Shown: piece by piece, positions 43,570-45,101 of the stretch
Layout of the letters: each line of letters starts with the position of its first letter
How positions within the stretch are numbered: position 1 is the first letter of the stretch
From: Eunapius fragilis
Taxonomy: Eukaryota; Porifera; Demospongiae; Spongillida; Spongillidae
Direction of reading: 5' to 3'
Length of the DNA: 64,000 nucleotides
Assembly (NCBI GenBank): GCA_963681505.1
Contig: OY811984.1
Span: 581,772-645,771, forward strand
Position numbers and translations under genes: made by a program
Notes under the pieces: generated by a model
Database searches by the model: none
Seen by the model: the letters and a program-made list of their open reading frames with translations, nothing else
What the model was told of the DNA's origin: nothing

Positions 43570-45101
43570 CTATGCAGCCTCTTCTGCCTCTCCCTCTTCC
43601 TCCTCTTCTGCCTCGCCTTCATCTTCAGCTGTGGCATCCTGGTATTGCTGGTACTCAGAAACGAGATCGTTCATGTTCGACTCAGCCTGTATAAGAAAGT
43701 AAAATGATCCCATGTTTACATCAAAGTCCCTTTACCTCAGTGAACTCCATTTCATCCATGCCTTCACCTGTATACCAGTGCAAGAAGGCCTTTCGACGGA
43801 ACATAGCACTGAACTGCTCACTGATGCGCTTGAACAGCTCTTGAATGGCAGTGCTGTTACCAATGAAGGTACCAGACATCTTCAAACCACGAGGTGGAAT
43901 ATCGCAAACTGCTGTCTTCACGTTGTTTGGAATCCACTCCACGAAGTAGGAGCTGTTCTTGTTTTGTATGTTGAGCATCTGCTCATCAACCTCCTTCATC
44001 GACATGCAACCACGGAAGATGGCAGCAACAGTTAGGTATCTGCCATGGCGAGGATCACATGCAGCCATCATGTTCTTTGCGTCAAACATCTGCTGGGTGA
44101 GCTCTGGAACAGTTAGTGCACGGTACTGCTGGTAGCGACAGTTGGTGAGGGGGGCAAATCCTGGAATGAAGAAGTGAAGACGGGGGAAGGGGACCATGTT
44201 CATTGCCAGTTTGCGCAGATCAGCATTGAGCTGTCCGGGGAAGCGTAGACAGGTGGTCACTCCACTCATTGTTGCTGAGATAAAGTGGTTGCCGTCCATA
44301 TAACTGGGAGAGGTGAGTTTCAAGGTGCGGAAGCAGATATCATACAATGCCTCATTGTCGATGCAGTAGGTCTCATCTGTGTTCTCTACAAGCTGATGTA
44401 CTGAGAGGGTAGCGTTATATGGCTCTACTACAGTATCTGACACTTTTGGGGATGGCACTACACTGAATGTATTCATTATTCTGTCAGGATACTCTTCACG
44501 GATCTTTGAAATGAGAAGTGTTCCCATCCCAGAGCCAGTACCTCCACCAAGTGAGTGGGTGAGCTGGAAGCCCTGTAAACAGTCACAGCCTTCAGCTTCC
44601 TTACGAACAACGTCTAGAACGGAGTCAACAAGCTCTGCTCCTTTGGTGTAGTGGCCCTTAGCCCAGTTATTTCCAGCTCCACTCTGACCTGGAGGTAAGC
44701 ACGATATTATAAGCGCCTTACTATCAAAAAGGCGGCAAAACAAGAAGACAGGCAAAGGCAAACAACTCACCAAATACGAAGTTATCTGGTCTGAACAGCT
44801 GCCCGTATGGACCGGAACGCACGCAGTCCATTGTACCAGGCTCTAGATCAACTAGAACGGCACGAGGAACGTACTTTCCACCGATCGCTTCGTTGTAGTA
44901 GACATTTATCCTTTCCAGTTGAAGGTCGGAGTCTCCATGATAGGTACCCGTCGGGTCAATACCGTGCTCGTCAGATATGACTTCCCAGAACTGAAACGGT
45001 AAGAATGCAAAAGGTTTCTTTTTACACAATAAATGCTTCCTCACCTTGGCACCAATCTGGTTACCACACTGACCGGCTTGCAAGTGTACAATCTCTCTCA
45101 T
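43570..45101 (-). CDS. divergent beta-tubulin, copy A
   Basis: Four exons, 45045-45101, 44771-44990, 43736-44688 and 43570-43686, encode 448 aa with an intact frame. The MREI start (tubulin mRNA autoregulation signal), GTP loop GGGTGSGMG (about 140-148), [10 protein letters not shown] and acidic E-hook tail are all present. Compared with copy B it differs at about 20 residues, many invariant in beta-tubulins: T55I, S75C, E108K; in helix H7 [11 protein letters not shown] becomes [11 protein letters not shown] (219-229); V255M; M267I; in the M-loop TSRGS becomes TNCRY (274-278); R320C; V333I; T386S. GTP-contact residues Tyr222 and Asn226 are kept. Upstream of the ATG the sequence stops matching copy B and becomes segment D1. 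Either a specialised isotype or a decaying copy. Confidence 0.9.

What the first reader, a model, noticed from the sequence alone, without database searches (positions are those of the whole stretch)
43570..45101. Beta-tubulin copy A has clustered changes in helix H7 and the M-loop
Copies A and B share exon lengths and most sequence, yet A differs at about 20 residues, and the changes pile up in two short patches. In H7 (residues 219-229) [11 protein letters not shown] reads [11 protein letters not shown]; in the M-loop (274-278) TSRGS reads TNCRY. R320C is a third radical change. In published beta-tubulin structures (numbering there is +2 after residue 44) these patches line the taxane pocket and the M-loop makes lateral protofilament contacts. 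The GTP contacts Tyr222 and Asn226 are kept and the frame is open for 448 codons. If the host is a sponge, note that sponges are known sources of tubulin-binding compounds such as discodermolide, laulimalide and peloruside. A drug-tolerant or specialised isotype is therefore a possibility, purely as inference. The rival idea is relaxed constraint after loss of the promoter.
Basis: partly seen in the sequence, partly recalled or inferred. Interest (0 to 1): 0.75.

Follow-up and report, generated by a model that had tools for sequence, protein, structure and literature searches.

The report
Young beta-tubulin copy, remodelled assembly core
An animal that is very probably a glass-spicule sponge carries a recent extra copy of a beta-tubulin gene whose protein-changing mutations are packed into two short parts that control microtubule assembly and lie at drug-binding pockets, which makes it a candidate specialised tubulin, although nothing yet shows that it is used.

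Summary
Copy A (43570-45101, minus strand) is an intact four-exon, 448-codon beta-tubulin, sister to copy B (48091-49648). They differ at 18 residues; six lie in residues 219-229 (H7), four in 275-278 (M-loop), joint P = 4e-5. B equals a PDB beta-2B chain over residues 208-292; A has 12 changes there. The patches hold 14 of 36 nucleotide differences. In a codon model their omega on the A branch is about 24 and omega = 1 is rejected (p = 1e-8); outside them it is about 0.3, not significantly below 1. A's coding sequence has no indels against ten in 922 aligned bases of its introns and flanks, so decay is unlikely. The only other beta-tubulin found in the genome is not the donor. A lost B's promoter three bases before its ATG but lies downstream of a copied transhydrogenase 5' region with two conserved islands. 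Silicatein-type genes point to a sponge. Best reading: a young isotype adapted in its assembly core. Drug tolerance is possible (L228F; R276C at a discodermolide contact), untested. Expression is unproven.

The parts
43570..43686 (-). copy A exon 4 (stop codon at 43570-43572)
43736..44688 (-). copy A exon 3, containing both patches
44771..44990 (-). copy A exon 2
45045..45101 (-). copy A exon 1, ATG at 45099-45101
44279..44311 (-). H7 patch, codons 219-229 ([11 protein letters not shown]), 9 nucleotide changes from B
44132..44143 (-). M-loop patch, codons 275-278 (NCRY), 5 nucleotide changes from B
   Evidence: coordinates worked out by hand from the exon bounds
44006..44008 (-). R320C codon
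   Evidence: coordinates worked out by hand
44883..44885 (-). T55I codon (H1-S2 loop by recalled secondary structure, which receives the neighbour's M-loop)
   Evidence: coordinates worked out by hand
48091..49648 (-). copy B, canonical beta-tubulin (exons 49592-49648, 49309-49528, 48256-49208, 48091-48207)
42686..45104 (-). duplicated segment carrying A, matching 47050-49651
42831..43330 (+). copy of part of the putative small gene next to B (6 indels, 21 substitutions in 499 aligned bases), internal control for decay
45101..45357 (.). copy of the 3' flank of the transhydrogenase gene (38379-38647); junction with a shared TTTT run 3 bases before A's ATG
45366..45455 (.). inverted copy of 42217-42306 (transhydrogenase 5' side)
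45479..45554 (.). inverted copy of 38681-38756 (transhydrogenase coding end)
45586..45916 (-). copy of the transhydrogenase 5' region (42311-42668), same orientation relative to A, with CCAAT, GC box and a putative first-exon splice donor; candidate promoter of A (use not shown)
38637..41888 (-). nicotinamide nucleotide transhydrogenase open frame (source of the copied 5' region)

Best explanation
Copy A is a young, intact beta-tubulin paralogue undergoing functional divergence. Shown by sequence: (1) a block ending 3 bases before the ATG is duplicated, so A lacks B's promoter; (2) pieces of the neighbouring transhydrogenase gene, including its 5' region in the correct orientation, lie just upstream of A; (3) A has an indel-free frame and GT/AG at all three introns; (4) A has an excess of protein changes at the start of H7 and the start of the M-loop. 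Inferred: A is transcribed from the copied transhydrogenase 5' region, perhaps with its first exon spliced in; A pairs with normal alpha-tubulin; and the H7 and M-loop changes, with T55I (H1-S2 loop) and E108K (H3) on the receiving side of the lateral contact, alter lateral bonding and the curved-to-straight switch, giving a subset of microtubules with different stability, protofilament number or ligand response. The G223M/L225G and R276C/G277R pairs look like compensating swaps (a bulky side chain, and an arginine, each moved by one or two positions), which suits remodelling more than decay.
For: Codon model on A, B and C over 430 codons: patch omega on the A branch 24.2 against fixed 1, 2dlnL = 32.8, p = 1e-8; omega rest 0.30; omega of B and C branches 0.05. 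With C as outgroup, counted by hand: synonymous changes 6 unique to A and 6 to B (2 more ambiguous), replacements 13 and 2 (3 more ambiguous), p = 0.007. Outside the patches 8 replacement and 14 synonymous differences, P = 3e-5 against neutral proportions (includes B's own constraint); A side only, ambiguous sites included, 6 of 14, P = 0.005. Expected neutral replacements in the patches 1.6, observed up to 14, P = 2e-9. Indels: 0 in 1347 CDS bases against 10 in 922 aligned non-CDS bases, Fisher p = 1e-4, Poisson P(0) = 5e-7. B is identical to a PDB beta-2B chain at 85 of 85 residues 208-292, where A has 12 changes. No donor found: C has [10 protein letters not shown] and TSRTS, and the H7 patch occurs once in the genome at up to 3 mismatches. 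Copied 5' region: 5 substitutions in 223 bases in two islands against 19 in 83 between them, p = 4e-8. Lateral contacts join the M-loop to H1-S2, H2-S3 and H3 (PMC10519996; PMC12966321; passages).
Against: No RNA evidence exists here. Omega = 1 for A outside the patches is not rejected by the likelihood test (p = 0.19), because with a distant outgroup the A and B branch lengths trade off. The patches were defined by looking at the same differences that were then tested. Three codons carry 2-3 changes each (223, 225, 277), so one or two clustered mutation events would also raise omega. The two replacements counted as B's (V333, T386) match the PDB chains, so their direction is uncertain. A's 5' leader would contain upstream ATGs unless spliced (read). 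The structure prediction of A's exon 3 was unusable (mean pLDDT 35.9), so no 3D effect was computed.
Confidence: 0.55

Rival explanations
1. A is a drug-tolerant tubulin: the sponge or its symbionts make, or it meets, a tubulin poison, and A's taxane-site/M-loop and vinca-site changes reduce binding or counteract its effect.
For: L228 changes, F among them, in paclitaxel-resistant CHO lines (PMC2675838). R276 is structure residue Arg278, contacted by discodermolide and dictyostatin (PMC6471726). Residues 219, 221 and 225 (structure 221, 223, 227) are within 4 A of docked vinblastine (PMC3790769). The host is very probably a siliceous sponge, and sponges yield taxane-site compounds such as discodermolide (PMC2866475, passages).
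Against: Ten other taxane-site resistance positions and Gln280 (structure 282) are unchanged between A and B. L228F is listed as lowering microtubule stability and not implicated in drug binding. B stays canonical, so the cell would keep a sensitive tubulin. No producer pathway was looked for. The listings of two literature searches (15 of 16 papers; 12 of 74) showed no title on a sponge tubulin altered at these sites.
Confidence: 0.19
2. A is a decaying copy with relaxed constraint; the clusters are chance plus a few multi-base mutations.
For: Native promoter lost; many changes hit residues shared by B and PDB beta-2B chains; A outside the patches does not reject omega = 1.
Against: Zero indels and no stop in 1347 bases while introns and flanks of the same duplication have 10 in 922; A-side replacements outside the patches are few by counts; the patches run far above the neutral rate.
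Confidence: 0.13
3. The patches came in by one or two templated events (gene conversion or repair from a divergent tubulin-like sequence) rather than stepwise selection.
For: 14 changes in 45 bases with three multi-base codons; tight edges.
Against: Three beta-tubulins were found and C is canonical; no second copy of the H7 patch (the M-loop patch was not scanned genome-wide); the longest exact matches to the patches elsewhere in the window are 11 and 12 bases, about chance level by hand estimate. A templated tract would be expected to carry more silent changes than the one or two possible here. The genome search scores only the best candidates, so a very divergent donor could be missed.
Confidence: 0.1
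4. Assembly or consensus error in A.
For: Near-identical tandem copies can be mis-assembled; no reads were available.
Against: A and B have different flanks, different intron lengths and dispersed silent differences, and the changes keep the frame.
Confidence: 0.03

Closest known systems
Canonical animal beta-tubulin (copy B; PDB beta-2B/4B chains)
   Same: 448 aa, families PF00091 and PF03953, MREI start, acidic tail, and Y222 and N226 (GTP contacts, recalled) kept
   Different: A changes 12 of 85 residues in 208-292, where B equals a beta-2B chain
Tetrahymena beta-like tubulins BLT1/BLT4 (PMC3382179, passages)
   Same: Isotypes with altered M-loop and lateral contacts beside a canonical beta-tubulin
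   Different: BLTs are 65% and 56% identical to the canonical protein (tails excluded) and change GTP-site residues; A is 96% identical to B (430 of 448) and keeps Y222 and N226
Paclitaxel-resistant CHO beta-tubulin leucine-cluster mutants (PMC2675838, passages)
   Same: L228F
   Different: Drug-selected cell-line alleles; A is a gene in a genome assembly with 17 further changes from B
Promoter capture after duplication with a neighbouring gene (general kind, recalled)
   Same: Copy cut from its promoter and joined to another gene's 5' region
   Different: Use of the captured region is not shown here

Membership tests
Beta-tubulin | Tubulin GTPase and C-terminal domains | tested here: met
   PF00091 E = 6e-63 and PF03953 E = 3e-43, both above cut-off
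Beta-tubulin | Best matches are beta, not alpha or gamma | tested here: met
   All 60 PDB matches shown (of 173) carry a tubulin-beta name; A's exon 3 is 42% identical to the two alpha-like proteins aligned
Beta-tubulin | Assembles with alpha-tubulin into microtubules | not testable with these tools
   needs protein
Specialised beta-tubulin isotype | Intact gene with changed assembly surfaces and a canonical partner gene retained | tested here: met
Specialised beta-tubulin isotype | Expressed in a distinct place or time | not testable with these tools
   no RNA data held
Decaying pseudogene | Stops, frameshifts or broken splice sites | tested here: not met
   none in 1347 bases; GT/AG at 3 of 3 introns
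Taxane-site resistant tubulin | Reduced response to a taxane-site ligand | not testable with these tools
   only residue matches: L228F, R276C
Taxane-site resistant tubulin | Changes at the 11 taxane-site positions listed in PMC2675838 | tested here: inconclusive
   1 of 11 differs between A and B (L228F); the other ten do not

The most novel reading that the evidence does not exclude
A natural sponge tubulin whose lateral-contact loop, its receiving side and the H7 switch helix were rebuilt together under positive selection after a recent tandem duplication, driven by a mitochondrial transhydrogenase promoter, so that the animal keeps a set of microtubules tolerant of tubulin-binding toxins made by itself or its symbionts.
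Probability: 0.13. Interest if true: 0.85.

Novelty: new variant of a known kind. Interest (0 to 1): 0.6.

Why it matters
Over residues 208-292 sponge copy B is identical to a PDB beta-2B chain (mammalian by recall), so a natural beta-tubulin that changes 12 of those 85 residues while its silent sites differ from B by only about 5% is a rare chance to learn which parts of the assembly core can be rebuilt, and in what combinations. It offers a clean A/B pair for reconstitution: same tail, same length, 18 residues apart, the changes at the lateral contact, the nucleotide-side helix and two classic drug sites. If the host makes or carries tubulin poisons, it would make self-resistance in animals directly testable.

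Tried and rejected
Gene conversion from C: rejected, C is canonical in H7 and reads TSRTS in the M-loop. Donor elsewhere: genome pattern scan at 3 mismatches found only A (H7 patch only). Local template within the window: only 11-12 base matches. Micro-inversion of the patches: compared by eye, no call, no fit. Ongoing B-to-A conversion leaving old patches: no silent excess in the patches, and the longest identical run in the CDS (163 bases) is not unusual (P = 0.31). Relatives: one scan of viral contigs found nothing; genome contigs (prokaryotes) was not scanned; no collection of other animals was available, so sister-species evidence is missing. Structure of A exon 3: an alignment of 5 sequences gave mean pLDDT 35.9, discarded. 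Host: my first silicatein check read 12 of 30 loci on one strand and saw only cysteine motifs; the fuller check of all 30 fetched loci on both strands (84 family matches, 30 made loci) found 11 distinct motif contexts, 8 with Cys and 3 with Ser (seven loci, on C10 and C3), and the one tested matched silicatein alpha (6zq3, E = 2.5e-15) ahead of 122 other chains (60 shown). So my earlier doubt about a sponge is withdrawn and drug tolerance raised slightly (0.17 to 0.19; decay lowered 0.15 to 0.13; novel case 0.12 to 0.13). Wnt matches lie at three places on two contigs. One row counts an indel under exon 1; it is alignment past the ATG breakpoint, and one search uses 0. The polyG segment 42686-42830 (5 indels, 12 substitutions in 139) was left out of the indel comparison; including it would strengthen the contrast. 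The promoter-island figure (20 in 106, by subtraction) is replaced by a direct count (19 in 83).

Full report
What is there. The window lies in an unnamed 219 Mb genome of 24 contigs, contig C14. Copy A is a complete minus-strand gene with exons 45045-45101, 44771-44990, 43736-44688 and 43570-43686; copy B has exons 49592-49648, 49309-49528, 48256-49208 and 48091-48207. Both encode 448 residues with equal exon lengths and GT/AG introns. Eighteen residues differ, 14 further codons differ silently, and 36 nucleotides differ in all.

Genome context. A search with B's exon-3 protein gave 11 matches: three at 95-100% identity (A, B and a third gene, C, at C14:364582-365532), five at 40-43%, and three short ones at 38-48% on C4 and C13. 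Two of the five were aligned and look alpha-like by recall; the other three, and the short ones, were not examined. DNA search agrees: B 97%, C 91% to A's exon 3. The tool scores only the best candidates, so 'three beta-tubulins' means three found. C is canonical in the H7 core and reads TSRTS in the M-loop, so it is not the source of A's patches. A pattern search for the H7 patch with up to 3 mismatches found A alone.

How A arose. A self-comparison shows that 42686-45104 matches 47050-49651; that 45101-45357 matches the 3' flank of the transhydrogenase gene (38379-38647); that two short pieces upstream of A are inverted copies of transhydrogenase-gene sequence; and that 45586-45916 matches the 5' region of that gene (42311-42668) in the same orientation. 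The gene is identified by Pfam and PDB matches. The join lies 3 bases before A's ATG, at a run of T shared by both sides. The simplest history, inferred, is a tandem duplication of the block from the transhydrogenase 3' flank to the ATG of B, followed by loss and inversion inside the second transhydrogenase copy and decay of the other duplicated gene. A thus lacks B's promoter, which holds a perfect TGCGCATGCGCA palindrome (position; called NRF1-like from recall), and has the copied transhydrogenase 5' region about 485-815 bases upstream. In that copy a CCAAT box and a GC box are kept, and two islands have 5 substitutions in 223 bases while the part between them has 19 in 83 aligned (p = 4e-8; the alignment of the middle is uncertain). 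A donor-like GT at the end of a putative first exon is kept as GTACGG against GTAAGG (read). Promoter use is inference.

Is A decaying? The same duplication supplies a control. The neighbouring gene copy, 3' flank and introns show 10 indel events over 922 aligned bases; A's 1347 coding bases show none (Fisher p = 1e-4, Poisson P(0) = 5e-7). Counts of replacements outside the patches are below neutral proportions (8 of 22, P = 3e-5, including B's constraint; 6 of 14 on A's side with ambiguous sites included, P = 0.005). Against this, a likelihood test with free branch lengths does not reject omega = 1 for A outside the patches (p = 0.19). Decay is therefore disfavoured mainly by the indels.

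Is the clustering selection? On the A branch the patches have omega about 24 and a neutral value is rejected (2dlnL = 32.8, p = 1e-8). Polarised by C, silent changes are balanced (6 and 6, 2 ambiguous left out) while replacements are not (13 for A, 2 for B, 3 ambiguous left out, p = 0.007; counted by hand, tested). Over residues 208-292 B equals a PDB beta-2B chain at 85 of 85 positions, so A's 12 changes there hit sites shared across animals (mammalian origin of the chain recalled). Limits: the patches were chosen after inspection, and clustered multi-base mutations can mimic selection. The pairs G223M/L225G and R276C/G277R look like compensating moves, which I take as weak support for remodelling.

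What the changes touch. Substitutions at L228 (F and H in the text, F and R in the table) occur in paclitaxel-resistant CHO lines with lowered microtubule stability (PMC2675838, passages). Arg278 and Gln282 are contacts of discodermolide and dictyostatin (PMC6471726, passages); A changes the first and keeps the second. Residues 219, 221 and 225 correspond to Thr221, Thr223 and Leu227, within 4 A of docked vinblastine (PMC3790769, docking table). Lateral contacts join the M-loop to the H1-S2 and H2-S3 loops and H3 of the neighbour (PMC10519996; PMC12966321; passages); A also has T55I, E108K and S75C, which by recalled secondary structure lie in H1-S2, H3 and H2. The M-loop aromatic Tyr281 named in PMC12966321 is kept. 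Residues 387-448 of A and B are identical.

Closest known cases. Tetrahymena BLT1 and BLT4 show that isotypes with substituted M-loops can serve special microtubule sets beside a canonical beta-tubulin (PMC3382179, passages), but they are far more divergent. The listings (15 of 16 papers; 12 of 74) showed no title on a sponge tubulin altered at these sites; that is a statement about two searches of an open-access library only.

Host. Wnt matches, absent from the 14 prokaryote controls, lie at three places on two contigs, as expected of an animal. Among 30 loci fetched for the cathepsin family, 3 of 11 distinct active-site contexts carry serine in CGASYAF. The one tested matches silicatein alpha best among PDB chains, and silicateins are the spicule proteins of sponges, with an active-site serine (PMC6233156, passages). 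The host is therefore very probably a siliceous sponge; the species is unknown.

Verdict. A real, statistically strong pattern in an intact young gene; most likely a diverging isotype with a remodelled lateral contact and switch helix (0.55). Drug tolerance is a fair but unproven special case (0.19). Expression data and a sister species would settle it.

Noticed in passing
42686-43330 against 47050-47806: The copied part of the putative small gene beside B (no Pfam match for the 46042-46599 stretch) is shorter than the copy beside B at most gaps (up to 45 bases), including 17 bases in what looks like a coding exon: an apparent deletion bias; direction not tested with an outgroup.
   Followed up: partly
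49755-49766: Copy B's promoter region holds a perfect TGCGCATGCGCA palindrome (NRF1-like, name recalled); it occurs nowhere else in 41800-50100, so A lacks it.
   Followed up: no
45586-45916 against 42311-42668: The copied transhydrogenase 5' region has two conserved islands separated by a fast-changing middle, and lacks 16 bases containing TTTTCCGCGC.
   Followed up: partly
G000:C10:2243904-2327708 and C3:8531232 (L031, L032, L033, L036, L049-L051): Silicatein-type cathepsin relatives with serine in CGASYAF, several clustered on C10, identify the host as very probably a siliceous sponge.
   Followed up: partly
34391-37657, minus strand: Long open frame of 1088 aa with charged, proline-rich and repeated segments (QQPSYLPPT, EFTQPRPV); no Pfam match.
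   Followed up: partly
55703-58804: About 3 kb array of a 27-base unit (96% self-identity at that step; RPIHYPSIH in one frame), open in several frames on both strands; a tandem repeat, not evidence of a gene.
   Followed up: no
G000:C14:1378684-1404444: Four apparently single-exon tubulin genes, alpha-like by alignment of one of them, lie within 26 kb on the same contig as the three beta-tubulins.
   Followed up: no
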